DNA from: Thalassobaculaceae bacterium
GTDB taxonomy: Bacteria > Pseudomonadota > Alphaproteobacteria > Thalassobaculales > Thalassobaculaceae
Assembly (NCBI GenBank): GCA_029212785.1
Contig: JARGOG010000016.1
Span: forward strand, 26,659-76,491
Reading direction: 5' to 3'
Length of the DNA: 49,833 nt
Below are positions 76-29,040 of the stretch, piece after piece (the stretch's first letter is position 1; each line of letters starts with the position of its first letter). The notes beneath the pieces are model-generated. The model was not told the DNA's origin and did not search any database. It was given only the letters and a program-made list of their open reading frames with translations. The position numbers were made by a program, and so were the translations under genes.

Positions 76-1997
76 TGCGCCGGGGCCGTCAACGGTTGCG
101 TGCTCAGATCCTGTGCCGGTTCCTCGGGAGGCGGGGCCGGCTCGACCCATTGTTCGCCGGGGAACAGCTCCCGTGCGGTTTCGGTCAGCGCCGTCGCCGC
201 CTCGGGAGCCTGCAACTTGCGCAGTCGCTCCAGGATCAGGTCGACGATCACGTCCTCGACCCCCGAATACGCCTGCGGATCGCTGCCGCGCAGCAGGGTG
301 ATATCTTCCCGCACATCTTCCGGCGCCAACGACTCGTCGCGGCCAAGCCGGTCGGCAAGGTCGAGCAGCAACAGATGGAACGGCCGCTCGGCGATCTGAT
401 GCATCGCCTCATCGTCCGGGAACAGGGTATGCCCGGCCCGCGCCGCCCAGTTGGCGAGGCGCAACCGCTCGGTCGGGGAGTCGGGCCCGACCAGGGCCAG
501 ACGGCGGATCCGCTCCTCGACCAGCGGTCGGGCGAGCGCGACGGCCGACGGGCCGAGCGGCCCGCCGGCGGTCTTCAGGTCGCTCATGGCCTGGATCAGG
601 CGCTCGTCGTCTTCGAAATAGGCGAGGCCGACCGCGCCGCCGAGCTCCAGGTCGCGCATCCCCAGCCGCGCCAGATCCGGGCGCAGCGCCACGGCGCCGC
701 CGAGGGCGATGGCCAGCAGCACCAGGATCAGCGGCCAGAGCGGGCGGGGCTTGCGCAGGCCGCGCAGGAACGCGCCCATCGATTTCGGCCGCCGGTCGCG
801 GTCGAAGGCAAGGCCGCGGCGCAGGGTTTTCCATGCCCGGCCGGGCAGGCCGTCCGGGCGCGGCGGCTGCAGGCGCCGGGAGCGGGCCTGGTCCGCCGGC
901 AACCGGTCGAACGGGTGCAGCCCGGTCAACATCTCGTAGGTGATGACCGCGAGCGAGAAGATGTCGTCGCGCGGATCCGACGACATGTGCCGGAGCTGCT
1001 CGGGGCTGGCATAGGCGGGAGTCAGCGCCTCGATCGCCGGTTCCGGCGCCGTCTCGTCCCCGCTTTTCTCCGGTGGCGGCGTGCCGGCCCCCTGGACCTC
1101 CTGGGCGACACCGAAATCGAAGACCCGCCAGGACCCGTCGGAGAGCTGAAACAGATTGCTCGGCTTCAGGTCGCAGTGGACGATGCCCTTGGCATGGGCG
1201 GCGGCGAGGCTGCGGCCGACGGTATTGACGAATCCCAGGGTGCGCGCCCAGGTGACCGATCGGCCTTCCCGCGTCTTCAGCATCCGGCTGAGCGGCGTGC
1301 CGTCCAGGAACTCCATCACCGTGTAGGGACGGTCCTCGTGCACCCCGGACGCGAGAATCTTGACCACGCCGGGATCGTCGATGGCGGCGGTGCGCTTGGC
1401 CTCGCGGGTGAAGGCCTCGACCGCGCCGGGCGTGTCGAGGAAGGCGTCCTTCAGAATCTTGACCGCGACGTCGCGGTTGGTTTGGCGGTCGTGGGCGCGG
1501 AAGACGACGGCCATGCCGCCGACACCGACCAGGGTCTTGAGCTCGAAGCGGCCCTTGATGGTATCGCCTTCGCCGGGCGCGCGACCGTGGTCGGGGGCGT
1601 CCTCGTCCGTATCTTCGCCCTCGGAATCCTCGCTCCAGATGACTGTATCCTCGTCGTCCGGCGGGGCGTCCGCGGTGAGCGCGCTGACCAGCAGGGTGCG
1701 GTCGTCGACGGTCTCCAGCTTGCGCACCCGGGCCGCCAGCGAACGCAGCATGACGACGGCACGGCGGTCGATCGCCCGGCGCTCGGCCAGCTCGCCGACG
1801 ATGCCGTCGAAGGCGCGCTGAGCGCCGGGCCCATAGCCGAGCATGGCGGCGAGGGAGGAGCGGGTGCGGTCGTCACCCGGATTACCGGCCAGCGCGACCA
1901 CGGCCGCCCGCATGCGGCCGGCGAACGGGTCGGACGGTGCCGGAATCTCGACATCCGTCCGGCCGTCCTCGACGGGTTCTTCCGGCGGCCGGCTCAT
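72..1997 (-). CDS. ppkA: T6SS serine/threonine protein kinase PpkA (ImpN type), membrane-anchored
   Basis: This is a 641-residue Hanks-type kinase. The N-terminal 145 residues are uncharacterised and end in an acidic stretch containing EDTVIW. The kinase domain spans about 150-412: a glycine loop GVGGMAVV near 158, lysine K180 in VAVK, catalytic HCDLKPSN with D276, DFG with D294, and TPAYASPEQ near 326. One membrane helix (about 419-438) follows, then about 200 residues expected to be periplasmic. PpkA phosphorylates the FHA protein in the threonine-phosphorylation pathway that triggers T6SS assembly; here that role rests on synteny with pppA, tagF and tagH. The ATG start overlaps the pppA stop (ATGA), so translation is probably coupled. 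All catalytic residues are present. The acidic threonines before the kinase domain could be FHA docking sites, which is inference. Confidence 0.93.
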   Translation of the reverse strand: MSRPPEEPVEDGRTDVEIPAPSDPFAGRMRAAVVALAGNPGDDRTRSSLAAMLGYGPGAQRAFDGIVGELAERRAIDRRAVVMLRSLAARVRKLETVDDRTLLVSALTADAPPDDEDTVIWSEDSEGEDTDEDAPDHGRAPGEGDTIKGRFELKTLVGVGGMAVVFRAHDRQTNRDVAVKILKDAFLDTPGAVEAFTREAKRTAAIDDPGVVKILASGVHEDRPYTVMEFLDGTPLSRMLKTREGRSVTWARTLGFVNTVGRSLAAAHAKGIVHCDLKPSNLFQLSDGSWRVFDFGVAQEVQGAGTPPPEKSGDETAPEPAIEALTPAYASPEQLRHMSSDPRDDIFSLAVITYEMLTGLHPFDRLPADQARSRRLQPPRPDGLPGRAWKTLRRGLAFDRDRRPKSMGAFLRGLRKPRPLWPLILVLLAIALGGAVALRPDLARLGMRDLELGGAVGLAYFEDDERLIQAMSDLKTAGGPLGPSAVALARPLVEERIRRLALVGPDSPTERLRLANWAARAGHTLFPDDEAMHQIAERPFHLLLLDLADRLGRDESLAPEDVREDITLLRGSDPQAYSGVEDVIVDLILERLRKLQAPEAATALTETARELFPGEQWVEPAPPPEEPAQDLSTQPLTAPAQ

Positions 1998-8102: not shown

Positions 8103-9434
8103 TTAGGATTCCCTGATTGCCCAAAATTCAAACCGCAAACCAGGATACTCGCCGGCAACGTGGAAGGCGAACGCCACCGAACTCGCCATCTTCGCCCAGA
8201 ACTCCGAAGATCGGTCGAGTTCGAAATAGGCCGCCCCGCTGTAGTAGGGGATCGCGCGTGGGGCGACCGGCAGGGCTTTCAGGGCGATGCCGGGAAGCTG
8301 GACGCTCACGAGGTTCCGGATTTCCTCGACCGGGCCGATCTTGATCTGATTGGGCATGGTGCGGATCAACTGGTCGGTGGCCACGTCGGCGCGGACCGAC
8401 AACACGAAGCGGGCGGTGTCGAGCAGGGTGCGGTCGCCGATCATGGAAATGCGGATGCCGTATTTCCGCTCCTCCATCGGCAACTGCATCGCGGGACGCT
8501 CCGAGACGACGCTCAGCGCTTGGCGGATCGCGTCCAGTACCGGCGGGAAACAGGTGGCGGGCCGGTCATGGTCGTAGTCGGGGAAAGCCTCCGGGCGACG
8601 GTCGGGCATGAAGGTCGCCAACTCGCCGGCCAGCGCCAGGGCCGAAGCATAGGCACGCTCGGGATGCAGGTCGGCGAGACTGACCAGGTGTCGGAACAGC
8701 GCCTCGTTGCGGTTCACCGTCTGCAGCAGCAGGAAGTCGAGCAGGTCTGACAAGCCTTCGGCGCGCGACGGGTCGATCTGCGATGCCAGCGTCTCGCCGC
8801 GGCGGCGCAGCAGGGCTTCGATCTCGGTCAGAAAGGACGCGAAACCCCGGTCCGCCGAACAGGTCAGCGACGGCGGCAGGAAATCGCCGTCCAACTCGAT
8901 CCCGCCGCTCGGGTTGATGGCGCGGATGCGGGCGATCGGCAGGGTGATCATGTCGTCGACCGCCTCGCCGTCGATCACCAGCCGCAGGGCGGCCCGGGCC
9001 ACCCGCATATCGACCGGCTCGCTGTCGGAGGCGGTGGAATCGCGCACCGCCTCGGTCGCCACGTTGAACCGGGCAACGGTCGTGCGCTGTTCTTCCAGCG
9101 CGATGTCGGGCTCGTCGCCGCGCAGGGCGGCCAGGGCCACGTAGACCAGGCGGCCGGCGCCGTCGCGTCCGATCTCGCGCACCGCCGGCAGGTCCGCCTC
9201 GTTCGGCGAGTCGATCGGCGTGCCGTCCGGGAGAATGGCGGACACCGCCGTTACGCTTAGCTTGCCGAGGGCCAACATGTTGCTGTCGATCGCCAACTGC
9301 CGCAGCCCCCAGCCATACGACGCCAGGCCGCCCAGGCGGTTCTCCAGCCGCGCGCTCCAATGCCGGTCGTTTTGCTGGAAATGCTGCGGGCGCATGAACA
9401 TGCCTTCGAACCACAGCGGTTTGTTGTTTGTCAT
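8103..9434 (-). CDS. tssK: T6SS baseplate subunit TssK (ImpJ/VasE)
   Basis: A 443-residue TssK, the trimeric baseplate protein that links the TssFG wedges to the TssL/TssM membrane complex. The N-terminal signature LWFEGMFMRPQHFQQ is seen at residues 7-21 and is nearly invariant in the family. I chose the ATG at 9434 because the protein then opens with MTNNKPLWFEG, the normal TssK beginning. The frame stays open further upstream, but that part resembles nothing and overlaps the spacer after tssJ. The length agrees with other TssK proteins (about 445 residues). It is cytoplasmic, with no signal peptide. Confidence 0.96.
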   Translation of the reverse strand: MTNNKPLWFEGMFMRPQHFQQNDRHWSARLENRLGGLASYGWGLRQLAIDSNMLALGKLSVTAVSAILPDGTPIDSPNEADLPAVREIGRDGAGRLVYVALAALRGDEPDIALEEQRTTVARFNVATEAVRDSTASDSEPVDMRVARAALRLVIDGEAVDDMITLPIARIRAINPSGGIELDGDFLPPSLTCSADRGFASFLTEIEALLRRRGETLASQIDPSRAEGLSDLLDFLLLQTVNRNEALFRHLVSLADLHPERAYASALALAGELATFMPDRRPEAFPDYDHDRPATCFPPVLDAIRQALSVVSERPAMQLPMEERKYGIRISMIGDRTLLDTARFVLSVRADVATDQLIRTMPNQIKIGPVEEIRNLVSVQLPGIALKALPVAPRAIPYYSGAAYFELDRSSEFWAKMASSVAFAFHVAGEYPGLRFEFWAIRES

Positions 9435-9498
9435 CGCGACCCGTCGGTCCTGTTGCTGCCCAAGAAATGCCCGGTCCATGCCTTTCGGCGCGCCCGGC

Positions 9499-10044
9499 CT
9501 AGAAGATATTCCACCAGGAACTCTCGACGACCTTGCTGTTGATCGACAAGGCGTCAACCGTGACCAGAATAGTGTTGTCGGTCTCAGACTGAACCGGAAC
9601 CTTGCCGCGCCAGGTGGCGTTGGACAGGTCACGGTAGCCGGCGATGAAGCCGAGATACCGGGTTTCGGAGCTCAATGTGTCGGTGCGCTCGATGGTCTGG
9701 CCGGGCGCGATCTCGACCTCCCGGCGGTCCAGCATGTCGCCGCCGAGCGTCGCCTGATCGTCGTAGAAGAGTTGCGAAAACTCAGCGGTGTCGAAGGTCG
9801 AGGTCGCCTTGAGCTCGTAGATGCGGACCACCACGGGCGACGCGGTGCCGGCGGCGTTGGGATTGATCTTGTCGGTCGCCTGGATCGTCAGGCCGGCGGT
9901 GGTCGGGTCGGGCGTGGAACTGCCGGAACAGGCCGACATCAGCGCAACGACGATTGCCGTCGCCAGCGTCAGGCGTGCATGCCGAACCCACTCCCGGAGG
10001 TTGGAAAACCCGCTCCGACCCGGAGGCCCCGCACGATCCATCAT
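9499..10044 (-). CDS. tssJ: T6SS outer-membrane lipoprotein TssJ
   Basis: A 181-residue lipoprotein of the envelope complex, expected to sit in the outer membrane and bind the periplasmic end of TssM. The signal sequence has a basic segment (REWVRHAR), a hydrophobic core (LTLATAIVVAL) and lipobox MSAC, putting the acylated cysteine at 39. The mature part shows the TssJ pattern with PVVVRIYELK and FYDDQ-like segments, and ends in ESSWWNIF. Three ATGs lie close together at 10050, 10044 and 10041. The GAGGA at 10055-10051 abuts the first but sits six bases before the second, so I prefer 10044. The gene lies between tagH and tssK. Confidence 0.9.
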   Translation of the reverse strand: MMDRAGPPGRSGFSNLREWVRHARLTLATAIVVALMSACSGSSTPDPTTAGLTIQATDKINPNAAGTASPVVVRIYELKATSTFDTAEFSQLFYDDQATLGGDMLDRREVEIAPGQTIERTDTLSSETRYLGFIAGYRDLSNATWRGKVPVQSETDNTILVTVDALSINSKVVESSWWNIF

Positions 10045-10081: not shown

Positions 10082-11572
10082 CTACTGTTCGCGGCGCAAG
10101 TCATTATACACGCGAGTGAATTCATCCCAAAGTCTCGCCTTGCGCTCAAGCTCGGACAAACCCTCCGGAAGGATAAGCCCCGCTTCGATCTCGCCGGGCG
10201 ATAGCGGCCCGGCCGATCTGTCGCCGCCGGAATCCGTGTCGACCGTGCGGTCCGGGGGGGCGATCGCCGACGGCCGGACCGACGCGGCGGGCTCGGCTGG
10301 AGGTGCCGGCGGCGCGTCGAAGGGGTCGCCCAGCAGCGCGTCGATATCATCCGGCAACCCTGCCGGGATATCGGCGATCGGCGGGATTGGGGGCGGTGCT
10401 GTTGGGGCCGGCCGGGGCGGGGATACGGACGGCGCTGCCGGCGTGGGCCGGGAGAGAGCGGGCGGCGGCGGCGGGATCGGCACGGACCGCCTCGTCACAT
10501 CGGGGCCCGACGCACCGGTCCCCTGTGCTTCAGTCGCGGCAACGTCATCGTCCGCCGTCTCGCCGGGGGTGGCGCGCGCGGTATCCGGCCCGATGAGGTC
10601 TTCCAAGTCGAGCCCGGCGATGGCCGCGGCATGGTCTATCGGCGGGATGTCCGCACCGTCCCCGGCGTCGTCGTCCGGCCGGGCGCTGACCGATGGTGCC
10701 GAGGCCCGCACGGCCGCGGATGCATCTTCGGTCGGCGGCGGTGTCGGCTCGGTCGGGGCCGCGCGGGCGGACTCCTGCGGACCGGGTGGCGGCGCGGGGG
10801 GGGCGACCGGCGGCGGTGCCTGTACCGGTTTCGGTGCGGGATTCTCGGCAACTGGATCCGGCCGCGGCACCAGCCGAGGCGGAGGTGGCGGCACCGATGC
10901 GGTTGTGGTCGGCGGGGCCATGACTGGAGCCGCCGCCGGGGGCGGTGACGACAGTGGCGGGGCCGAAACCGGTGGGGCTGCGGGTGGTGGAGCCGCGGCG
11001 GGCGCGCGACGCGGGGGCGGTGCGAGCACCTGTGGATCGGGAAAGGGCGGGATCGCCGCCGGTTCGTCATCTTCCACCGGGACGCTGCCGGGCCCATCAT
11101 GTGCGCCGCTGGCCGGCTCGGCATCATCTGGATCGGGTTCGTCCGGCAGGGGGGCAAGCAGGCTGTCGATGTCGATCGCCGGCGAAGGTGTGGGGGCGGC
11201 TCGCGGTGCCGGTGCCGCCGGCCTGGCACCGGGCAGGGGCGTGTCCGCACCTTCATCGATCCGGGCCAGGATTTCGAAATCGCCGAGCGCCATGCGGTCG
11301 CCGTTCGAGATCGGCCAGCGCGCGCCTTTCCCGAGCGGCACGCTGGAATCGTTCAGGAACAGACCGTTGGTACTGACATCGGTTATGTAAAAGCGGTCGC
11401 CGTCGAACGAGATCTCCGCATGGCTGCCGGAGACAAACCGGTCCGGATCCGGCAGCACCCAGTCGCTACGCCGCCCGCGTCCGATCACGCCGCCGGTTTC
11501 GTCGAACTCGTGCCGGCTCCCGCTGCCCATCAGGGCCTTCTGGAAACTCGTGACGTCCAACATTAGGCGCAT
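10082..11572 (-). CDS. tagH: FHA-domain protein TagH (ImpI/Fha) with long Pro-rich tail
   Basis: A 496-residue scaffold that should be the phosphothreonine-dependent switch acted on by PpkA and PppA. The FHA domain occupies about 20-95, with GRGRRSDW at 31-38, SGSHAEI at 48-54 and DVSTNG at 65-70, all phosphopeptide-binding positions. Residues from about 110 to 440 are a low-complexity Pro/Ala linker. A short conserved-looking end (LPEGLSELERKARLWDEF) closes the protein. The large folded C-terminal domain of many TagH proteins is missing or reduced. I chose the ATG at 11572 because GGAGG lies five bases before it. An upstream ATG at 11626 has no ribosome site. The stop is 37 bases before the tssJ start. 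Confidence 0.88.
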   Translation of the reverse strand: MRLMLDVTSFQKALMGSGSRHEFDETGGVIGRGRRSDWVLPDPDRFVSGSHAEISFDGDRFYITDVSTNGLFLNDSSVPLGKGARWPISNGDRMALGDFEILARIDEGADTPLPGARPAAPAPRAAPTPSPAIDIDSLLAPLPDEPDPDDAEPASGAHDGPGSVPVEDDEPAAIPPFPDPQVLAPPPRRAPAAAPPPAAPPVSAPPLSSPPPAAAPVMAPPTTTASVPPPPPRLVPRPDPVAENPAPKPVQAPPPVAPPAPPPGPQESARAAPTEPTPPPTEDASAAVRASAPSVSARPDDDAGDGADIPPIDHAAAIAGLDLEDLIGPDTARATPGETADDDVAATEAQGTGASGPDVTRRSVPIPPPPPALSRPTPAAPSVSPPRPAPTAPPPIPPIADIPAGLPDDIDALLGDPFDAPPAPPAEPAASVRPSAIAPPDRTVDTDSGGDRSAGPLSPGEIEAGLILPEGLSELERKARLWDEFTRVYNDLRREQ

Positions 11573-11637
11573 GCGTTCCTCCAACGTCACGACGTCGCCA
11601 CGTCCTCGTCCCTCCCGCCGGGCCATTTGGTGCGGTT

Positions 11638-11694: not shown

Positions 11695-13494
11695 TCAGAC
11701 CGGGAGATCGAGATTGACGGTCACGCCGCCCAGGATGTCGCGTCCCGTCGTCACGCGAATGGACAGGACCTGCTCGCCTTCCTGCTCCTCCTCGAGCGCA
11801 ACCGAGACCTCGGCGTCGCGGCCCATCAACCCGGCCAGAAAGATCTCCATCGCATCGCGAATGCCCGACGGCGAGGCGGCGGCGAAGATCAGGTCGGCAT
11901 TGCCCTCGATCTGGCGAATCAGGCGCGATACCAGAAGCTGGAAGTCGAACGTGCCGTCGCGCGGGAGGTCGCCGGTCGGATCCGATCGCGCGGACCGCAC
12001 GCTTGGCACCCGCACCAGCCGGGCGATGTCGCGGTTGGCCTGCCCGACCAGCGCGATGAGCCCGGCATTGGCGAGGCTTGCGGCGGCATCCGGGCGCAGG
12101 GCCATGGCGACGGCGAAGACATTTGCGTCGGCCTCGTCGTCGCCGTAGAGCGGCAGACCATCGATGACCTGGCTCGGGCCGGTCAACTCGGTCGGCCAGC
12201 CGGTCGCCGCGGCACTCTCGGCGGCCAGCGCGGCCACCAGCCAGGCGCCGCCGGCCTCCAGGGGTGTCCCGACCGCAGTGGCGCCCGATGCCTCGGAGAA
12301 TGCGAGGCGGCGCTCGGTGACCAGATCATGCGCCGGTCGCAGCCGAAACCGGTTGACCGTCAGGCCAAGCCAGCGAGACACCGGCTTCGCTCGCAGGCTG
12401 GACCAGGGGGCATAGGCGGCGTCCTGGAACAGGGTCTCGGGATCGCGGTGACGCGCGAGATCCTCGCCGCCATGGACGAAATCCGCGCCGGCGGTGGCCA
12501 CCACCGGCACCTGGATCTCGGCGCCGATTTCGGCCAGCGCCTGAAGCCGGGCGGTGTCACCCGGGCCGGAGCCGAATTCGTGGGCCGACACCAGGAGACC
12601 GAGCCCGGCGGGTTGCTGGTCCGCCGCGTCGATCAGAATGGCGCGCGCCGCGTCGGCGGCCTCTTCCCTGGAGGCGCTGATCACGTGGACGAAACACTGG
12701 GCCCGCCGGTCGCTGTGCCGCAGCAGGAACCGCAGCCCCCGCCAGCTCGTCTCAAGCGCCTGGAACACGGGAGCATCCAAGACGGCAGCGAGTTGGGCGG
12801 CGAGGCGTCGTTCGGCCTCGACCGTTGCCCCGCCGTTGCCGTTCGCGGCGGCGGCGGAGTTGCGTCCCCCCATCGAACCGATGAAGGCGGAGACCGCCCG
12901 TTTGGCCGGATCGTCGCGCGGGGTCGACGCCGGCGCCGGTGGTGCCCCGGTCCCACCGGGATCAACCATGTCGAACAACCGGTCGAGCGGATCGTCGCTG
13001 CTCGATGCCCGATCCGATCCCTGGCCCGAATCCTGATTGGAGGGCATCGGCGGTGAGGGCGGCGCGCTCGCTGCGGGGGCCGGTTCGGCAGCGGATGGCG
13101 CCGGCATGCCGGCACCGAGGCCGGGGAGGTCTTCGGCCACGTCCGTCGGGGCCGCACCCCTGCGCAAGCTGTCGCGGGCGGCGAGCGCCTTGGCCAACGC
13201 CGGCACGCTTTCGAGCAGACGCGGTGGGGAGAAATCCTTCAGGGCGCCGATTTCGAGGCTCACGGCCAATGGCCGATCGCCGCCACCCAGGTGATCGGCG
13301 ACCGCCAGATCGAGCCGGGGTCGCGCGCTGGCCAGTGCCGCGTCCGACTCCTGATCGTCGAACCCGTGAAGCCTCCCGGGGGCCAGACCGAAATCGCCGA
13401 TCACGACGATGCGGAAGGGGACGCGCCGCGCCTGACCGGTCGATGGAGGCCGGGACCCGAATTGCGCGCTGACCAGGTTGGGATCGTCCGACAT
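11695..13494 (-). CDS. TssB-TssC fusion-type sheath-like protein (second, divergent sheath homologue)
   Basis: A 599-residue protein with two sheath-like halves. Residues about 25-110 resemble TssB: VPFRIVVIGDFGLAPG and VSLEIGALKDFSPPRLL align with LPFKQVVLGDFSMRP and VSLKFDTLKDFEPEQLV of the true TssB at 15405-15902. A Pro/Ala/Ser-rich linker covers about 125-225. Residues 228-599 resemble TssC: ALETSWRGLRFLL and WLGLTVNRFRLRP match TMESSWRSLKYMV and YFGLTAPRFMLRM of the canonical TssC. Rhizobial imp clusters carry an extra TssC-like gene (ImpD), and this may be a fused form of it. It starts the leftward operon. The ATG at 13494 follows a G-rich ribosome site. Its role, whether a sheath cap, baseplate adaptor or regulator, is unknown. 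Confidence 0.75.
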   Translation of the reverse strand: MSDDPNLVSAQFGSRPPSTGQARRVPFRIVVIGDFGLAPGRLHGFDDQESDAALASARPRLDLAVADHLGGGDRPLAVSLEIGALKDFSPPRLLESVPALAKALAARDSLRRGAAPTDVAEDLPGLGAGMPAPSAAEPAPAASAPPSPPMPSNQDSGQGSDRASSSDDPLDRLFDMVDPGGTGAPPAPASTPRDDPAKRAVSAFIGSMGGRNSAAAANGNGGATVEAERRLAAQLAAVLDAPVFQALETSWRGLRFLLRHSDRRAQCFVHVISASREEAADAARAILIDAADQQPAGLGLLVSAHEFGSGPGDTARLQALAEIGAEIQVPVVATAGADFVHGGEDLARHRDPETLFQDAAYAPWSSLRAKPVSRWLGLTVNRFRLRPAHDLVTERRLAFSEASGATAVGTPLEAGGAWLVAALAAESAAATGWPTELTGPSQVIDGLPLYGDDEADANVFAVAMALRPDAAASLANAGLIALVGQANRDIARLVRVPSVRSARSDPTGDLPRDGTFDFQLLVSRLIRQIEGNADLIFAAASPSGIRDAMEIFLAGLMGRDAEVSVALEEEQEGEQVLSIRVTTGRDILGGVTVNLDLPV

Positions 13495-15404: not shown

Positions 15405-15902
15405 ATGGCGAGTGAAGGATCTGTGGCACCGAAAGAACGGGTCAATATCCGTTATCGTCCGGCAACGGGCGATGCGAAGGAAGAGGTTGAGCTGCCGTTC
15501 AAGCAGGTTGTCCTCGGCGATTTTTCGATGCGTCCGGACGACACTCCGCTCGAGGAGCGGGAGCGTATCCGTGTCGACAAGGATAACTTCAACGATGTGA
15601 TGAAGGCGCAGAAGCTGTCGCTCGACCTCAACGTCAAGGACACGCTGTCCGACGAGGCCGACGCACAAATGCCGGTCAGCCTGAAATTCGACACGCTGAA
15701 GGATTTCGAACCCGAACAGCTCGTCAACCAGGTGCCGGAGCTGCGCAAGCTGCTTGAGCTGCGCCAGGCGCTGATGGCGCTCAAGGGGCCGCTTGGCAAC
15801 GTGCCGGCGTTCCGTAAGGCGATCCAGGGCATTCTCGACGACGAAGGTGCGAAATCACAGCTCTTGGCCGAACTCGGCTTGGATAAGGACGCGAGCGAGT
15901 AG
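15405..15902 (+). CDS. tssB: T6SS contractile sheath small subunit TssB (VipA)
   Basis: A 165-residue small sheath subunit that pairs with TssC to form the contractile sheath around the Hcp tube. Family signatures are LPFKQVVLGDFSMRP, FNDVMKAQKLSL and the segment from FDTLKDFEPEQL to RKLLELRQAL. The length is standard (about 165-175). It starts with ATG after GGGAGG at a good distance. It lies 47 bases after tssA and 24 bases before tssC. No part is missing. It is clearly distinct from the TssB-like half of the fusion protein encoded on the other strand. Confidence 0.97.
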   Translation: MASEGSVAPKERVNIRYRPATGDAKEEVELPFKQVVLGDFSMRPDDTPLEERERIRVDKDNFNDVMKAQKLSLDLNVKDTLSDEADAQMPVSLKFDTLKDFEPEQLVNQVPELRKLLELRQALMALKGPLGNVPAFRKAIQGILDDEGAKSQLLAELGLDKDASE

Positions 15903-15926
15903 CGCGCAGGAACAGGAGGACTAGCG

Positions 15927-17414
15927 GTGGCCGATACGCAGACCGATTCCGGCGCACAGGGTGCCGACGCCCAGACCGAGGAACTCTCTCTCCTCGATCA
16001 GATCATGCACGAGACCAAGCTCGCTCCGGCGGATGACGGCTACGATGTCGCACGTCAGGGCGTGCAGGCGTTCATTGCCGAGCTGATGAAGTCGCAGCAT
16101 GCGGGCGAGAAGATCCAGGCGTCGATCGTCGACCAGATGGTCGGCGAGATCGACAAGCGGCTGAGCGCCCAGCTCGACGAGATCATGCACAACGAGAGCG
16201 TCCAGACGATGGAATCGTCCTGGCGCAGCCTGAAGTACATGGTCGACAAGACCGACTTCCGTCAGAACATCAAGGTCGAGATGCTGAACGTCTCGAAGCA
16301 AGACCTGATGGAGGATTTCGAGGACGCCCCGGAGATCGTGAAATCCGGTCTGTACAAGCACATCTATGTAGACGAGTACGGCCAATTCGGTGGCGAACCG
16401 GTCGGCGTGATGATCGGCAACTACAATTTCGACGCCGGTGCCAAGGACGTGCAGCTGATGCGCGACATCTCCGCCGTCGGGTCCATGGCCCATGCGCCGT
16501 TCCTGGCTGCTGCCGCGCCGAAGATGTTCGGTGTCGAGAAGTGGGAAGAGTTGGCCGGCCTGAAGGACCTGCAGTCGATCTTCGAGGGACCGCAATACGC
16601 CAAGTGGAATTCGTTCCGCTCCTCGGAAGATGCTCGCTATTTCGGTCTGACGGCGCCGCGCTTCATGCTGAGGATGCCGTACAACCAGGAATCAAACCCG
16701 GTCAAGGCCTTCAACTACAACGAAGAATCGAACGGCGACACGGAACATTACCTGTGGGGCAACACCGCCTTTGCCTTGGCCACGCGCCTGTCCGACAGTT
16801 TCGCCAAATACCGCTGGGCGCCGAACATCATCGGTCCCCAGGGCGGCGGCGCGGTCGAGGACATGACCATGCACCAGTATGAGTCCATGGGCCAGATCGA
16901 GACCAAGTCGCCGACCGACGTGATGATCTCCGACCGCCGGGAATACGAGATGGCGGAACAGGGCTTCATCGCGCTGACGCTCCGTAAGGGCAGCGACAAC
17001 GCCGCGTTCTTCTCGGCCAACTCGGTGCAGAAGCCGAAGTATTTCGGCAACACGCCGGAGGGCAAGGACGCCGAGACCAACTACAAGCTCGGCACCCAGC
17101 TTCCCTACATGTTCATCATCAACCGCCTGGCGCACTACGTGAAGGTGCTCCAGCGCGAGAACATCGGTAGCTGGAAGAACAAGGGCGAGCTGCAGGACGA
17201 ACTGAACAACTGGATCCGGCAGTACGTTTCCGACCAGGAGAACCCCTCGGCCGATGTCCGCAGTCGACGCCCGCTGCGCAAGGCGGATATCTCGGTGGAG
17301 GATGTCGAGGGCGAGCCCGGCTGGTACCGCGTCAACATGGCGGTGCAGCCGCACTTCAAGTACATGGGCGCGGACTTCACCCTGTCGCTGCGCGGCAAGC
17401 TCGACAAGTCCTGA
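15927..17414 (+). CDS. tssC: T6SS contractile sheath large subunit TssC (VipB)
   Basis: A 495-residue large sheath subunit. Characteristic segments are ESVQTMESSWRSLKYMVDKT, the stretch around AHAPFLAAAAPKMFG, DARYFGLTAPRFMLRMPY and the C-terminal beta-strand GADFTLSLRGKLDKS that takes part in the sheath handshake with TssB. The ClpV-contacting and core parts appear intact. It starts with GTG preceded by AGGAGG at seven bases. tssC follows tssB in the same operon, and tssE begins 56 bases later. Codon use looks more biased than in neighbouring genes, as expected for an abundant structural protein. Confidence 0.97.
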   Translation: MADTQTDSGAQGADAQTEELSLLDQIMHETKLAPADDGYDVARQGVQAFIAELMKSQHAGEKIQASIVDQMVGEIDKRLSAQLDEIMHNESVQTMESSWRSLKYMVDKTDFRQNIKVEMLNVSKQDLMEDFEDAPEIVKSGLYKHIYVDEYGQFGGEPVGVMIGNYNFDAGAKDVQLMRDISAVGSMAHAPFLAAAAPKMFGVEKWEELAGLKDLQSIFEGPQYAKWNSFRSSEDARYFGLTAPRFMLRMPYNQESNPVKAFNYNEESNGDTEHYLWGNTAFALATRLSDSFAKYRWAPNIIGPQGGGAVEDMTMHQYESMGQIETKSPTDVMISDRREYEMAEQGFIALTLRKGSDNAAFFSANSVQKPKYFGNTPEGKDAETNYKLGTQLPYMFIINRLAHYVKVLQRENIGSWKNKGELQDELNNWIRQYVSDQENPSADVRSRRPLRKADISVEDVEGEPGWYRVNMAVQPHFKYMGADFTLSLRGKLDKS

Positions 17415-23570: not shown

Positions 23571-24077
23571 TCAGTTGTTCCAGTCGTCGCCACCGGACGT
23601 GCCCGCGACCTCATGGGTCACGGCGATCTTCTTGTAGGTGATCTTCAGCTCTTCCATATGGCCATAGCTGCTGTTGGCGCCGTCCAGGGCCATCGGGAAG
23701 TAGGGCTGCAGCGAGACCAGCGTCGCCTCGTCGAGCTCGACCGTGTAGTAGAGTTCCTGCGAACCGGTCGACGCGGTGCGATAGAACTCGACCTTCACTT
23801 TGGTGAGCTGCTCGCCGGTGGCGATCGCCTGAAGGATCAGCGGCGAGGCCTTGTCCAGATATTTGACGATGCGGCAACCGGTATGAACGCGGCGCCCGGT
23901 CGGCTGACCGCTCTGGGGGTCCGTGGGAACGGAAATTCCCAGCTCGAACTCCTGGATCTGCATCTTGTTTTCTTGGCTCGAGACGGAAAGAGTGCCAACG
24001 GAGTCAGCGGACATCGCCCCAGAGGACATGTCGCCCTGATTGGCACCCTCAATCGTCATATAAGCTGGTGTAGGCAT
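23571..24077 (-). CDS. hcp: T6SS tube protein Hcp (TssD)
   Basis: A 168-residue Hcp, the hexameric ring that stacks to form the inner tube and is secreted. Family marks are the N-terminal MPTPAYMTIEGANQGDM, the central HTGCRIVKYLDKASPLILQA and the C-terminal HMEELKITYKKIAVTHE. The ATG at 24077 is preceded by AAAGGGA at a good distance. It is transcribed alone, opposite to tssH, with its own upstream region, which allows expression at a higher level than the core operons. The loop around residues 20-40 (SSGAMSADSVGTLSVSSQEN) is somewhat long. No extended toxin domain is present, so this is a structural Hcp. Confidence 0.97.
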   Translation of the reverse strand: MPTPAYMTIEGANQGDMSSGAMSADSVGTLSVSSQENKMQIQEFELGISVPTDPQSGQPTGRRVHTGCRIVKYLDKASPLILQAIATGEQLTKVKVEFYRTASTGSQELYYTVELDEATLVSLQPYFPMALDGANSSYGHMEELKITYKKIAVTHEVAGTSGGDDWNN

Positions 24078-24316: not shown

Positions 24317-27300
24317 ATGACCATCGTGAAGCCGCTGCGTTTGGGGCTTCTGGCGCGGGCCCATCGACAGCCACCGAAGGTTTATTATTTCGTCGCCGCG
24401 GTGGGGTATTTCGATCTCCTCGATCCTACGGATTTCGGCCTTGAGACCGAGATGTGGCCGACGATCACGCCGGCGATCGGCGGCGATATGCTGGATACCT
24501 GCATGCCGAAGCCGGCCGGCGAAATGCTGGTCGCGGGCGACGCCTGCGCGCCCGCCGGCGAGACGGTCCGTCAATGCGTGGTCGACATTCAGCTCGGCGC
24601 CATCAAGAAGCGCCTTGCGGTGTTCGGCGATCGGGAGTGGATGCACGGCGACGGGGGCCCCGTCTTCACCCGGCCCGCGGCGTTCTCCCGGATGCCGATC
24701 AGTTGGGAAAACGCGTTCGGCGGCGCCGGCGTCGACGTCAATCCGGGAGGCAAGGGGGCGGGCGCCGAAGCCGCCCTGCGCGAAGGTCGACAGGCCCTGC
24801 TGCCGAATGTGGAGGACCCCGCCCGGCTGATCCTGGGCATCGGCGACAAGCCGGCACCGATCGGCGTGCGGCCGATGGCGATCGACCATCCGGCACGTAT
24901 GAAGCACGCTGGCACCGTCGATGATTCCTACCTGCGCGAACAGTTCCCCGGTCACCCGCTGAATTTCGACTGGGCTTTCTATCACTCCGCGGCGCCCGAC
25001 CAGCGCGCCGCCGGCTACCTGCGCGGTGACGAGCCGATCCGGATCACCGGCATGCATCCGGACCACCCGGTCATCGCCAGCCGCCTGCCGGCGATGCGGG
25101 CCCGGGCATTCCTCAACCTGGACAAGGGGGAGGGCGAGACCGAATTCCGCGAGGTCACGTTGCGATGCGAGACCGTGTGGCTGTTCCCGACCCTGCTGAA
25201 GGGCGTGGTGATCTATCGCGGCGGCTGCGAGATCGGCGACATCGACGGGCTCGATGTGAAGGATACGATGCTCGTCTACGAACGCATGGCCGAGGAGCCA
25301 CGCTCGATCGAGCATTATCTGTCGGCGTTGAAGGAGCGCACCGATCCGGAGACCGCCGCGCTCAAGTTCTTCGACGAGAAACCCTTGCGCCCCGAACTGA
25401 CCGCCGATCAGGTTGCCGAACGCGAGGAAGAGGTCGCCGTTGCCGAGACGGAGGAGGAGCGCAAACGGGAAAAGCGGGCGGAACTTGCGATCGTCGGAGC
25501 ATTTCGGGCCGCCGGCCTGCCGGCGCCGCCCTCGATCGCGATCCCGAAGCCGCCGCCGTTGCCGGTGAAGATACCGGTCGTCACCCCCCAGGCGCTCGCC
25601 CGTATGGAAGTCGACATGGTCGGAATCCTGAAGGCGACGAAGGACATCCAGGCCTATGCCACCGGCCAGCTCAACGCGGCGAAGGCTCAGGCGCTCGGCG
25701 AGACCGCGTCCTGGCTGCGGCAGGTGCAGCAGCAGACGAAGGGCCTGATCCCGGCCAAGAAGGCGGCCAAGCTGGCCTCGGCGGCGAAATCCGTAGCCGG
25801 CGCCATGGCGAAGCTCGCACCGCCCGGTATGACGCTGCCCGACGGCAGCGCGGCGCCCGATGCGACGGCCATGGACGAGGGGACGGTGGCGATGGCCGGC
25901 GGGATCCCGGCCGGAGAGGACGTGCTGGCCGCCCTGGCCGAGGGTATTCCGCCGGAGCAGATGGCCGAGCTGGACGCAGCGATCGCCGCCCTCGACGCGG
26001 AGGACACCGACGACGGCGATATCGAGACCGAGAAGCGGCTGGCCCGGGCTCGGGCGCTCGGGTTGCCGGAAGGTGCGTTGCTGGCGCCGGCGCGCGATCA
26101 ACTCGACCAGCTTTCGTCCGACGGGCTGGCGCAGCGCCTCGCCGGCGCGCCCGAGGGCATGCGGATGCCGGATCTGGCGGCGGCCCTGTCCGCGCCACCG
26201 ACGCCGGAGCCGGCAGAGGCGCCGGCCGGTCTCGACGACGCCGACGCATTCCTGGCTTCGCTCGGTATCAGCGTGGTCAACGCCCCGCCGCCTCCCGGAG
26301 GGTCCGCCGATGCGAAGGCGGCCATGGCCAAGGCCGCGGACGCGGTGAAGCAGGTCACCGAGGCTTCGCCGCTCGCCGCCCACGCGATGGCGGCCGGTGC
26401 CCAGGCGGATCCCGTGCCGATGGATGCCGCCTTGGATCAGGCCAGGACCAGCCTCGACGCGGCGCAGGCGAAGGTGGATGAAGGCCTCGGCAAGGTCCGT
26501 CTGGTCAGTCCGCAGGCGATTTTTCCGCTGAACGACATGGCGGAGGCCGTGTCGGTCGATCTTGGCGCGCTCATTCTCGATCTGAGGGGGCGCGGCGAGT
26601 CCCTGGCGGGCCGCGAGCTAGCCGGCGCCAGTCTTGCCGGTGCGGATCTGTCGGGCCTGGACCTCAGCGGCGTCAAACTGGAGAAGGCGGATCTGCGCGG
26701 GGCGAAGCTGACGGCCTCGAACCTGTATGAGGCAGCCCTGACCGGAGCGAATCTGGACGGCGCCGACTTCACCGGCGCGGTCCTGACGGGCGCCAATCTC
26801 TCCAGCGTGAGCGCCCGCGAGACGGTCTTCGCCAAGGCCGACCTGCGGGACGCCCGGATGATGATGGCGGACCTGAGCGGCGCCGATCTGAGCGGCTGTC
26901 GGCTCGCCATGACCCAGGTGCTGAACGCCACGCTGACCGGCGCGCGGTTCGCCGGCGCGGAGCTCGACCGGCTGATGTTCATCCAGTCGGAAATGACGGG
27001 CATCGTTCTGGATGGCGCGCGGGCGAAGAGCTGCATCTTCATCGAGATCGACCTGGAGGGCCTCTCGGCCCGAGGAGCGGCGCTGAACAAATGCGTGATG
27101 GTCTCCGTCAGCGCCGAACACGCCGATTTCACCGGGGCGGACCTGTCGGACAGCGCTCTGATCGGTGGGGTGAAGCTGAACGGCGGGCTGTTCCGCGACC
27201 TGGTGGCCCCGCGCTCCGGCTGGCGTCAGGCTAGCCTGATCGGTGCCGATTTCACGGCGGCCCGGCTCGACGAGGCGGATCTGGGGGAGGTCGACCTGAC

Positions 27301-27547
27301 CGACGCGCGGCTGCCGCGGGCGTCGTTCCGACGTGCCAACCTGTCGGCGGCGACGTTGGAGCGCGCCGACCTCGCCGCCGCCAACCTGTTCGAAGCCCAG
27401 GTCCGGCGGGTCAATCTGGTTCAGGCCAGTTTGCGCCGGGCCAATCTGTTCTCGGCCAATCTGGACGAGGCGAATCTCGCATTCTGCGACATCACGGGCG
27501 CGAACCTGAACCGAACCCTGTTCGCGAGGCCCGGCCGTGTCGCCTGA
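24317..27547 (+). CDS. DUF2169 domain protein fused to pentapeptide repeats (T6SS adaptor/cargo candidate)
   Basis: A 1076-residue protein in three parts. Residues about 1-330 are a DUF2169 domain (MTIVKPLRLGLLARAH, ISWENAFGG). DUF2169 proteins occur in vgrG-PAAR clusters, and one serves as an adaptor for the Tde2 toxin in Agrobacterium. Residues about 330-720 are Ala/Pro-rich and probably helical. From about 725 to the end, pentapeptide repeats A(D/N)LxxA run without a break and should fold as a right-handed beta-helix. The start ATG has GGGAG seven bases upstream. The 3' end overlaps the next gene by 11 bases. No catalytic motif or signal peptide is seen. It may load a cargo onto the spike or be cargo itself. 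Confidence 0.85.
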   Translation: MTIVKPLRLGLLARAHRQPPKVYYFVAAVGYFDLLDPTDFGLETEMWPTITPAIGGDMLDTCMPKPAGEMLVAGDACAPAGETVRQCVVDIQLGAIKKRLAVFGDREWMHGDGGPVFTRPAAFSRMPISWENAFGGAGVDVNPGGKGAGAEAALREGRQALLPNVEDPARLILGIGDKPAPIGVRPMAIDHPARMKHAGTVDDSYLREQFPGHPLNFDWAFYHSAAPDQRAAGYLRGDEPIRITGMHPDHPVIASRLPAMRARAFLNLDKGEGETEFREVTLRCETVWLFPTLLKGVVIYRGGCEIGDIDGLDVKDTMLVYERMAEEPRSIEHYLSALKERTDPETAALKFFDEKPLRPELTADQVAEREEEVAVAETEEERKREKRAELAIVGAFRAAGLPAPPSIAIPKPPPLPVKIPVVTPQALARMEVDMVGILKATKDIQAYATGQLNAAKAQALGETASWLRQVQQQTKGLIPAKKAAKLASAAKSVAGAMAKLAPPGMTLPDGSAAPDATAMDEGTVAMAGGIPAGEDVLAALAEGIPPEQMAELDAAIAALDAEDTDDGDIETEKRLARARALGLPEGALLAPARDQLDQLSSDGLAQRLAGAPEGMRMPDLAAALSAPPTPEPAEAPAGLDDADAFLASLGISVVNAPPPPGGSADAKAAMAKAADAVKQVTEASPLAAHAMAAGAQADPVPMDAALDQARTSLDAAQAKVDEGLGKVRLVSPQAIFPLNDMAEAVSVDLGALILDLRGRGESLAGRELAGASLAGADLSGLDLSGVKLEKADLRGAKLTASNLYEAALTGANLDGADFTGAVLTGANLSSVSARETVFAKADLRDARMMMADLSGADLSGCRLAMTQVLNATLTGARFAGAELDRLMFIQSEMTGIVLDGARAKSCIFIEIDLEGLSARGAALNKCVMVSVSAEHADFTGADLSDSALIGGVKLNGGLFRDLVAPRSGWRQASLIGADFTAARLDEADLGEVDLTDARLPRASFRRANLSAATLERADLAAANLFEAQVRRVNLVQASLRRANLFSANLDEANLAFCDITGANLNRTLFARPGRVA

Positions 27548-28628
27548 GGAACTGCTCGAAGCGCTGGATGTCGGCGCCCAGGTCATCCGCGAGGGTTTCT
27601 CGGGCATATCGCTCGCCGGGCAACGTATGCCGGGCGGCATGTTGATCGAATGCGACCTGACCGGCGCCGATATGGCCGGTGCGGAGCTGTCCGGGGTGCA
27701 GTTCATCCGCTGCAAGCTGGCCGGTGCCAGTTTCGCCGGGGCATCGTTGACCAAGGTATCGCTGATCGAGTGCGACGCGCCGGGGCTCAATCTGGCCGGA
27801 GCGACGCTGGACACCACGACGGCGGTGAAGACGCCGTTGACCCTGTCGGACTGGTCCGACACGGCGTTCAGCCAGGTAACCCTGATCCAGAGCGACCTGA
27901 CCCAGACGCGCTTCGCCGGCGCGCGGCTCTATAAGGCGGCGGTGGTCGAATGCCCGCTCGATGGGGCCGATTTCACCGGTGCCGAGTTGAACACCATGGC
28001 CGTGGCCGATGCCGATCTGCGTGGTTGCATCTTCGCGCAGACGCGGTTCGACCGGGTCCTGTTCGTCAATGCCGTCCTGGCCGGGATGACCTTCGCCGGG
28101 CGCAGCCTGACCAACTGCAACTTCCAGGGCGCGGACCTGACCAGGATCGATTTCACCGGCGCCGATCTCTCCTTCGCGTCCTTTCTGCAAGCGAAGATGG
28201 AAGGCGCGACACTGGCCGGGGCCAAGGCGACGAATACCGTCTTCGTCGACACCACGGCCAAGGGCGTCGATTTCACCGGCGCGGATCTGCGCTACGCGAT
28301 CATGCAGGGCAGCGACATCGCCGGCGCGACATTCGACCGGTGCCTCATGGAACAGGCCTTCCTGAAGGGCGCGCAGGCGCAGGGCGCGACCTTCCGTCGG
28401 GCCGATCTGACGACCGCGGTGGCCGCCCATGCCGATCTGACCGGTGCGGATTTCCGCGGCGCCGGCGTGTATCGCCTCGACCTGCATTCGGCAACCGAGG
28501 ATGGCGTGCTCTGGGATGCGCTCGCCGCCCAGCGCTATGGTACGAATTATCCGCTGGCGATGGCCGAGAACTACGACGCCGTCGCGATCGAGCGGCAACT
28601 CCGGGCCCGTCGCGACCGGCCGGCGTGA
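27537..28628 (+). CDS. Pentapeptide repeat protein of the DUF2169 operon
   Basis: A 363-residue protein made almost entirely of pentapeptide repeats (A(D/N/S)(L/F)xG pattern) after a short leader, MSPEELLEALDVG, ending in a helical tail. It should form a long quadrilateral beta-helix. The GTG start lies inside the last codons of the preceding gene (11-base overlap), so translation is coupled and the two products probably act together. It resembles the C-terminal third of its neighbour and may have arisen by duplication. Pentapeptide proteins are frequent partners in DUF2169/DUF4150 clusters, but their biochemical role there is not established. An internal segment near 95-115 breaks the repeat. 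Confidence 0.85.
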   Translation: MSPEELLEALDVGAQVIREGFSGISLAGQRMPGGMLIECDLTGADMAGAELSGVQFIRCKLAGASFAGASLTKVSLIECDAPGLNLAGATLDTTTAVKTPLTLSDWSDTAFSQVTLIQSDLTQTRFAGARLYKAAVVECPLDGADFTGAELNTMAVADADLRGCIFAQTRFDRVLFVNAVLAGMTFAGRSLTNCNFQGADLTRIDFTGADLSFASFLQAKMEGATLAGAKATNTVFVDTTAKGVDFTGADLRYAIMQGSDIAGATFDRCLMEQAFLKGAQAQGATFRRADLTTAVAAHADLTGADFRGAGVYRLDLHSATEDGVLWDALAAQRYGTNYPLAMAENYDAVAIERQLRARRDRPA

Positions 28629-28641
28629 AGGAGGAAGACGC

Positions 28642-29040
28642 ATGTTCGCCACCACCCAGAGCCCGGCGATGAACTTCGCCTTTCCCGACGTCTGCAACAC
28701 CATGGTCGGACCGGCGGTCGTACCAATCCCCTATCCGAATTTCGCGTTCTCGGCGGTGGCCGTGCCGACCGTGTTCAACCAGTTCATCAGCGTCATGAAC
28801 GCCCATAACCAGTTGACCTACGGAACGATCTCGCTCGGCGACAACACCGGCCTGCTGCTCGGGGTCGCGTCGGGTATGGATATGGGCCCGCACTCGACTC
28901 TGCTCGGATCGGTGAAGGTGTTCACCAGCGTGGCGCCGGCGACCAAGATGCTGGCGCTGACCGGCGCGAACGGTATCGCCCCGAATATGGTCGGGGCGAC
29001 CCTGACACCCAGTCAGGTGACGGTGCTGTATCTCAGCTGA
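28642..29040 (+). CDS. PAAR-like DUF4150 spike-tip protein
   Basis: A 132-residue DUF4150 protein. The N-terminal NFAFPDVCNTMVGPAVVPIP and the following YPNFAF match the conserved opening of the family (AFPDVC...PVPIPYPN). DUF4150 proteins are PAAR-like and expected to cap the VgrG spike. It has no C-terminal toxin extension, so cargo would be attached indirectly. The ATG at 28642 has a very good AAGGAGG site. It is third in the DUF2169 operon, 13 bases after the pentapeptide gene. The C-terminal half (SMDMGPHSTLLGS-like) is Gly/Thr-rich, as in other members. It ends nine bases before the converging gene. Confidence 0.85.
   Translation: MFATTQSPAMNFAFPDVCNTMVGPAVVPIPYPNFAFSAVAVPTVFNQFISVMNAHNQLTYGTISLGDNTGLLLGVASGMDMGPHSTLLGSVKVFTSVAPATKMLALTGANGIAPNMVGATLTPSQVTVLYLS

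What the first reader, a model, noticed from the sequence alone, without database searches (positions are those of the whole stretch)
11695..13494. TssB-like and TssC-like sheath modules fused in one protein, beside an intact TssB/TssC pair
Both halves can be aligned by eye to the canonical subunits encoded at 15405-17414, joined by a 100-residue disordered linker. Alphaproteobacterial imp loci are known to carry a second TssC-like protein (ImpD), but a form with its own TssB part suggests a self-contained sheath protomer. It could nucleate, cap or poison sheath growth. It leads the operon that also encodes TagH and the kinase, hinting at a regulatory step.
Basis: partly seen in the sequence, partly recalled or inferred. 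Interest (0 to 1): 0.7.

Follow-up and report, generated by a model that had tools for sequence, protein, structure and literature searches.

The report
Single-chain sheath-like protein in T6SS
A marine alphaproteobacterium carries, beside the normal two-part sheath of its type VI secretion "harpoon", an extra protein in which both sheath parts are joined in one chain; relatives keep it in the same place, so it is probably a specialised, non-bulk piece of the machine whose exact job is not yet known.

Summary
Observation confirmed. Window 11695-13494 (minus strand) encodes 599 residues: 24-112 match TssB/VipA (E 1.5e-11), 227-499 match TssC/VipB (E 7.7e-33); an intact TssB/TssC pair lies at 15405-17414. 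AlphaFold models (moderate confidence) match contractile sheath proteins, including single-chain phage and eCIS ones over residues 24-589. Full-length homologues: BAL199 (two), a Rhodospirillaceae MAG (one intact, one broken), one genome of another family (G071); in all six loci fusion-TagH-TssK-TssL-TssM. Rare: 2 of 386 class genomes, 3 of 36 in the family. It is not ImpD, the rhizobial second TssC. The "linker" holds the protein's most conserved 9-residue window, resembling the ClpV-binding motif of TssC (similar patterns also occur in ClpV-less relatives, so the link is a hypothesis). The TssB N-terminal arm, the RRPLR segment and 39 of 66 near-invariant TssC positions are lost, the VipB-D333 equivalent among them. 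It diverges like TssL/TssM/TssA, not like TssB/TssC. Best reading: a specialised, probably non-contracting sheath protomer at one end, likeliest beside the baseplate; position inferred, not shown. In passing: 16 small genomes carry a different, canonical-type single-chain TssB-TssC as the only sheath gene found; ClpV over cut-off in 0 of 16.

The parts
11695..13494 (-). TssB-TssC-like fusion protein, 599 aa
   Evidence: open frame and Pfam/NCBIfam/hhalign matches
13426..13494 (-). residues 1-23: no match to the TssB N-terminal donor arm; low confidence in both models
   Evidence: VipA match starts at residue 24 / profile 25; models; alignment
13159..13425 (-). TssB/VipA-like half, residues 24-112
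   Evidence: PF05591 E 1.5e-11; hhalign probability 98.0
12913..13158 (-). linker, residues about 113-194
   Evidence: mean column identity 0.22 against 0.37 and 0.39 in the halves; low pLDDT
12961..12987 (-). conserved linker motif, residues 170-178 (LDRLFDMVD), resembling the TssC LLDEII ClpV-binding motif
   Evidence: best 9-residue window of 591; aligned to LLDQIM of the window's TssC; LLDEII motif described in PMC4239648 (passages); pattern controls
11953..12912 (-). TssC/VipB-like half, residues 195-514
   Evidence: PF05943 at 227-499, E 7.7e-33
11728..11952 (-). shortened C-terminal gp25-like domain, residues 515-589, without the RRPLR segment of TssC
   Evidence: no PF18945 match at E up to 1; structural alignments reach 589; gap in alignment A3
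11698..11727 (-). C-terminal strand, residues 590-599, aligned near the TssC C-terminal donor strand
   Evidence: strand 592-598 in both models; alignment
10082..11626 (-). TagH (FHA protein), next gene
   Evidence: TIGR03354 141.7 bits, cut-off 120.25
8103..9632 (-). TssK
   Evidence: TIGR03353
7182..8099 (-). TssL/DotU
   Evidence: PF09850
3523..7179 (-). TssM/IcmF
   Evidence: TIGR03348
2755..3480 (-). TagF N-terminal domain protein
   Evidence: PF09867
1994..3274 (-). frame with PP2C phosphatase domain (residues 192-373); true start not determined
   Evidence: PF13672
72..1997 (-). Ser/Thr protein kinase
   Evidence: PF00069
13642..15357 (+). TssA, divergent neighbour (start as used in the scan)
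   Evidence: TIGR03362 324.4 bits
15405..15902 (+). canonical TssB
   Evidence: PF05591 E 1.5e-56
15927..17414 (+). canonical TssC, with LLDQIM motif and D336 (VipB-D333 equivalent)
   Evidence: PF05943 and PF18945
17471..17878 (+). TssE (gp25-like)
   Evidence: PF04965
17875..19623 (+). TssF
   Evidence: PF05947
20715..23471 (+). TssH/ClpV
   Evidence: TIGR03345 1185.6 bits, over cut-off
23571..24077 (-). Hcp
   Evidence: PF05638

Best explanation
The protein is a dedicated, divergent paralogue of the T6SS sheath in which a TssB-like and a TssC-like half are one chain. Shown or predicted here: homology of both halves; the predicted fold of a whole contractile sheath protomer; retention in the fusion-TagH-TssK-TssL-TssM order in six loci; a conserved linker motif that resembles the ClpV-binding motif of TssC. 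Inferred: it is not a bulk sheath subunit but forms a small specialised layer, most likely the ring next to the baseplate, which accepts strands from the next ring and passes on the C-terminal strand of TssC but lacks the TssB N-terminal arm and the residue that helps hold the contracted state; it would serve as a non-contracting adaptor on which the TssB/TssC sheath polymerises, and ClpV might still recognise it for recycling.
For: Both halves match. Model 2 (pLDDT 60, pTM 0.57): all nine Foldseek hits with E up to 0.001 are T6SS sheath chains, and all 50 rows shown by VIA are chains of T6SS sheaths or of other contractile tails and injection systems, with single-chain phage, pyocin and eCIS chains aligned over about residues 24-589 at Z up to 15.3 (chain names are not given for all rows). 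Gene order kept in L028, L029, L030, L031 and L074 as in the window. Identity to the window: fusion 28-39%, TssL 38-49, TssM 37-47; TssB 78-80, TssC 71-82, TssH 71-75 (some values from partial frames), so it changes like membrane-complex partners and not like the lattice. Linker motif is the best conserved window of 591. TssB arm unmatched. D333 equivalent is D in 31 of 31 TssC rows and 18 of 18 single-chain canonical TssBC, but P, V or L in 6 of 6 fusion rows; in V. cholerae D333 and the VipA arm length are needed for contraction, and mutant subunits co-assemble and block it (PMC5797969, passages). Sheath linkers run to the ring nearer the baseplate, and TssE was proposed to accept those of the first ring (PMC5813253, passages).
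Against: No interaction, localisation or expression data. D333 loss is not special: 39 of 66 near-invariant TssC columns are lost in all fusion rows, which fits general loss of lattice constraint as well. The strict motif pattern LLDx[IV] is met by 3 of 5 fusions, not by the window's own (LFDMV); a looser pattern is met by 5 of 5, but also by 19 of 31 TssC rows and 7 of 18 single-chain canonical proteins from genomes of which none of the 16 tested has ClpV over cut-off, and L008, also from a genome without ClpV over cut-off, has PLDKLF. The acceptor domain is itself shortened and not recognised by PF18945. Models are of moderate confidence, and model 2 was helped by canonical TssB/TssC rows in its alignment. 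13 of 31 T6SS-bearing genomes examined have one TssC and neither fusion nor tandem ImpD, so no such adaptor is needed in general.
Confidence: 0.4

Rival explanations
1. Regulatory brake or ClpV adaptor: a soluble pseudo-protomer that is mixed into, or competes with, TssB/TssC, or brings or occupies ClpV by its linker motif, under control of the TagH/kinase/phosphatase genes of the same run.
For: LLDxV-like motif best conserved in the protein; non-contracting subunits are dominant negative in V. cholerae (PMC5797969, passages); gene run shared with TagH, PP2C and kinase.
Against: Present beside structural genes in each of the six loci, whereas a weakly similar kinase frame lies on the other side of the fusion in the BAL199 and M30B52 loci; whole sheath fold kept. 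Motif-like patterns also occur in genomes without ClpV. ClpV binding was not tested.
Confidence: 0.24
2. Distal cap or terminator of the sheath.
For: A sheath-like end piece is plausible, and the protein composition of the V. cholerae distal end was unclear in PMC5813253 (passages).
Against: It keeps a C-terminal beta hairpin where the acceptor strands of TssC lie and lacks the TssB donor arm, the reverse of what a terminator would need; a TssA gene is present. But the acceptor domain is shortened, which weakens this argument.
Confidence: 0.15
3. A second, minor bulk sheath subunit mixed freely into the sheath.
For: Complete protomer fold predicted.
Against: RRPLR segment, TssB arm and 39 of 66 near-invariant TssC columns lost; V. 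cholerae D333A and VipA-arm mutants block function when mixed in.
Confidence: 0.08
4. Decaying paralogue without function.
For: High divergence; one MAG copy (L031) is split over three frames.
Against: Five of six copies are intact, in three genera of two families by the tool's labels; the motif and 17 core columns are kept. The MAG with the split copy also has TssC, TssF and TssH split, so assembly error is likely.
Confidence: 0.05

Closest known systems
TssB/TssC (VipA/VipB) sheath heterodimer
   Same: Both halves homologous; predicted fold; motif like LLDEII before the TssC core
   Different: One chain; TssB arm, RRPLR segment and many near-invariant TssC residues absent; far more divergent; beside an intact pair
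ImpD / TssC40 of Agrobacterium and other rhizobia
   Same: A second TssC-like protein in alphaproteobacterial T6SS loci; TssC40 is required for Hcp secretion, yet TssB and TssC41 accumulate without it (PMC3702570, passages)
   Different: ImpD-type genes follow tssC, have VipB+VipB_2 and no VipA match in the two scanned; separate group in the tree; no genome of 31 has both
Single-chain sheath proteins of phages, pyocins and eCIS
   Same: One polypeptide covers the whole protomer; model aligns over about residues 24-589
   Different: Sequence is T6SS-type; lies in a T6SS locus beside a normal TssB/TssC pair
Canonical-type single-chain TssB-TssC of small-genome alphaproteobacteria (seen here)
   Same: TssB and TssC in one frame
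   Different: Keeps TssB arm, D333 and full TssC; only sheath gene found; ClpV over cut-off in 0 of 16 genomes

Membership tests
TssC (TIGR03355 / PF05943 + PF18945) | VipB N-terminal domain | tested here: met
   PF05943 114.3 bits, cut-off 27
TssC (TIGR03355 / PF05943 + PF18945) | PF18945 gp25-like domain and equivalog score | tested here: not met
   no PF18945 match at E up to 1; TIGR03355 104.1 of 271.5 bits
TssC (TIGR03355 / PF05943 + PF18945) | contraction residue equivalent to VipB D333 | tested here: not met
   D in 31 of 31 TssC rows, in 0 of 6 fusion rows
TssB (TIGR03358 / PF05591) | VipA domain | tested here: met
   44.8 bits, cut-off 24
TssB (TIGR03358 / PF05591) | N-terminal donor arm and equivalog score | tested here: not met
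   profile positions 1-24 unmatched; TIGR03358 38.8 of 97.25 bits
ImpD / TssC40 | TssC paralogue without TssB part, next to tssC | tested here: not met
   fusion carries a VipA half and heads the tagH run; tree
Contractile sheath protomer fold | sheath domains across one chain | tested here: met
   VIA Z 15.3 cyanophage A-1(L), 277 residues, rmsd 4.1; Z 15.5 Azotobacter T6SS sheath, 283 residues, rmsd 4.4; model of moderate confidence
ClpV-bound sheath protein | LLDEII-type motif | tested here: inconclusive
   strict pattern in 3 of 5 fusions, loose in 5 of 5; loose also in 7 of 18 single-chain proteins, 16 of them from genomes without ClpV over cut-off; binding not testable here
Baseplate-ring sheath adaptor | located in the ring next to the baseplate | not testable with these tools
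   no complex prediction or localisation available

The most novel reading that the evidence does not exclude
A T6SS lineage has a built-in, non-contracting, single-chain sheath ring: an obligate third sheath component that anchors the TssB/TssC sheath to the TagH-TssK baseplate side and may carry its own ClpV handle, recreating within a T6SS the phage-like single-chain protomer and the division of labour among sheath paralogues known from extracellular contractile systems (the latter recalled, from no call).
Probability: 0.28. Interest if true: 0.78.

Novelty: new variant of a known kind. Interest (0 to 1): 0.6.

Why it matters
How the T6SS sheath is joined to its baseplate, started and ended is only partly known. 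A natural sheath-like protein that keeps the protomer fold but lacks known contraction features gives a handle on that question, with a cultured relative (BAL199) at hand. It also shows that the split of the sheath into TssB and TssC can be undone in evolution, here as an extra part and, in small-genome alphaproteobacteria, as the main sheath protein.

Tried and rejected
A related-loci scan with the single protein found no relative; with the alignment it found the four named loci. Plasmid records: 223 of 72,556 match at E up to 1e-3, none over 80% of the query in one place, so no full-length fusion seen there. An order-level search around G071 held only that genome.

I first thought that a second sheath protein (ImpD or fusion) might be obligatory in alphaproteobacterial T6SS; rejected, since 13 of 31 genomes have neither (14 have a tandem or further VipB, 4 the fusion; my grouping of the table). 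I thought the loss of the D333 residue might be a specific sign of non-contraction; weakened by the base rate of 39 of 66 lost columns; the K223 column varies in canonical TssC too (K in 25 of 31). Of the 31 TssC rows two (L006, L016) are the same gene of G019, so 30 genes. I considered descent from the small-genome single-chain proteins; the tree puts the five fusions in one clade apart from them and from ImpD (100/100), but on very long branches that treekit flags as possibly false joins, with unusual composition, so origin is left open. Model 1 was too weak; among its VIA rows unrelated receptors have similar Z. Families not listed by VIA were not used as evidence. Literature searches for a described TssB-TssC fusion; none of the listings or passages that I read describes one, but most subscription journals and preprints are not held. 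PMC12175539 (passages) reports a T6SS in BAL199, lysis of amoebae at the high ratio and a colour change of Euglena, nothing on this protein.

Five of the 75 T6SS-matching class genomes (G164, G251, G257, G334, G407) were not looked at further.

Full report
1. Observation. The frame 11695-13494 (minus strand) encodes 599 residues. Residues 24-112 match VipA (PF05591, E 1.5e-11) and 227-499 match VipB (PF05943, E 7.7e-33), both over Pfam's cut-offs. NCBIfam equivalog scores are not reached. Profile-profile comparison gives 190-557 to TssC (probability 99.6) and 22-116 to TssB (98.0). The intact pair at 15405-17414 and other T6SS genes surround it. The window's genome shows two VipB places only, the fusion and TssC (likewise).

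2. Relatives. Full-length homologues: alpha proteobacterium BAL199, two; Rhodospirillaceae MAG M30B52, one intact and one split over three frames; and G071, a genome labelled as another family (28% identity). Counts, by my reading of single uninterrupted matches over the whole query: 3 of 36 family genomes; 2 of 386 class genomes, the window's own included; in 397 phylum genomes only the window's own (the list of matches is cut but sorted by score). No plasmid record has it over 80% of its length.

3. Neighbourhood. In all six loci the fusion is followed by TagH, TssK, TssL, TssM (in L074 TagH is a weak match, E 5.5e-9); in the window, L029, L030 and L074 the divergent run has TssA, TssB, TssC, TssE, TssF and TssH. 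L028 shows TssA and a kinase-like frame on that side, and L031 is a short contig. Azospirillum and Phyllobacterium plasmid loci instead carry a second tssC (ImpD) after tssC, which has VipB+VipB_2 and no VipA. Of 31 genomes that I chose from the T6SS-positive ones, 4 have the fusion, 14 a tandem or further VipB, 13 a single VipB, none both fusion and tandem (the grouping is mine).

4. Rate. Against the window the fusion is 28-39% identical, near TssL (38-49), TssM (37-47) and TssA (37-51), while TssB is 78-80, TssC 71-82 and TssH 71-75 (some values come from partial frames). It is held to the machine but not to the tight lattice; this last step is inference.

5. Structure. Model 1 (four fusion rows): pLDDT 50, pTM 0.45; its nine Foldseek hits with E up to 0.001 are all T6SS sheath chains. 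Model 2 (twelve rows, with canonical TssB and TssC rows, so less independent): pLDDT 60, pTM 0.57; again nine of nine. The 50 rows shown by VIA are all chains of T6SS sheaths or other contractile tails and injection systems, many named as sheath; single-chain phage, pyocin and eCIS chains align from about residue 24 to 589, through both halves. With model 1 unrelated receptors appear among rows of similar Z, so model 2 carries this point. TM-scores to the T6SS chains are modest (0.35-0.40 by query length).

6. What is kept and lost. The linker is poorly conserved (mean column identity 0.22) but its window 170-178 is the most conserved of 591 windows in five fusions; the motif reads LFDMVD, LLDLVD, LLDMVD, LLDMVA, ILSMVA. 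VipB LLDEIM and like TssC motifs are tied to ClpV binding (PMC4239648, passages); the window's TssC has LLDQIM. Three of the four fusion-bearing genomes have ClpV over cut-off; in G026 it is in two adjacent pieces. Control: within 110 residues before a conserved TssC tryptophan the strict pattern LLDx[IV] is in 3 of 5 fusions, 11 of 31 TssC rows, 1 of 18 single-chain canonical proteins and 1 of 4 ImpD-type rows; a looser one in 5 of 5, 19 of 31, 7 of 18 and 1 of 4. So conservation of the motif is firm, its tie to ClpV is a hypothesis. Lost: the TssB arm, the RRPLR segment, and 39 of 66 near-invariant TssC columns, 17 being kept in at least four of six rows. The D333 equivalent (numbering fixed by hand from K223 and D333 in the VipB alignment and the chain numbering) is D in 31 of 31 TssC rows and 18 of 18 single-chain canonical proteins, P, V, V, V, L, V in six fusion rows, and E, D, A, R in four ImpD-type rows. 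In V. cholerae D333A and lengthened VipA arms assemble but do not contract in cells and are dominant negative (PMC5797969, passages). TssB beta-1 and TssC beta-13 are the donor strands and TssC beta-11/12 the acceptor (PMC5807055, passages); the fusion models keep strands where acceptor and C-terminal donor lie.

7. Mechanism. A protomer that accepts from the next ring and gives its C-terminal strand downward, without the arm linked to contraction, fits a fixed ring near the baseplate better than a terminator or bulk subunit. This is inference. A regulatory pseudo-protomer remains the main rival.

8. Second finding. Sixteen small genomes of the class survey (0.6-1.9 Mb) and two of the phylum survey (L092, L093) have canonical TssB and TssC in one frame, 631-781 residues long; in the 16 every match lies in that one frame. 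TIGR03345 ClpV over cut-off: 0 of 16, against 7 of 27 small genomes with separate TssC and 29 of 31 of the other set. The sets were chosen by me, are not independent by descent, and some genomes are incomplete. In the tree single-chain and separate forms are mixed. A review calls the Holosporineae T6SS probably non-standard, and a word search in it finds no 'fused' (PMC11909080, passages); a Holosporales endosymbiont paper lists tssB and tssC as genes (PMC8163844, passages).

Noticed in passing
L007, L011, L075, L077-L086, L088-L090 (16 genomes); also L092, L093: Canonical-type TssB-TssC single-chain sheath proteins, the only sheath gene found in 16 small-genome alphaproteobacteria; ClpV over cut-off in 0 of 16.
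   Followed up: partly
window 24317-29040: DUF2169-pentapeptide-repeat protein (1076 aa) and a Tox-PAAR-like protein downstream of TssH/Hcp, with a VgrG-like protein (Phage_GPD) at 31981-34557: possibly an effector cargo region.
   Followed up: no
L030, L031 (MAG M30B52): TssC, TssF, TssH and one fusion copy are split over frames in this MAG, which suggests assembly errors.
   Followed up: no
L033 10959-11597: Azospirillum argentinense has a 212-aa hypothetical protein, without a BLAST match to the fusion, at the place upstream of tagH where the fusion lies in the window.
   Followed up: no
L029 9670-11136, L030 11339-12301: A kinase-like frame weakly similar to the window's kinase lies between TssA and the fusion in BAL199 and the MAG, unlike in the window.
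   Followed up: no
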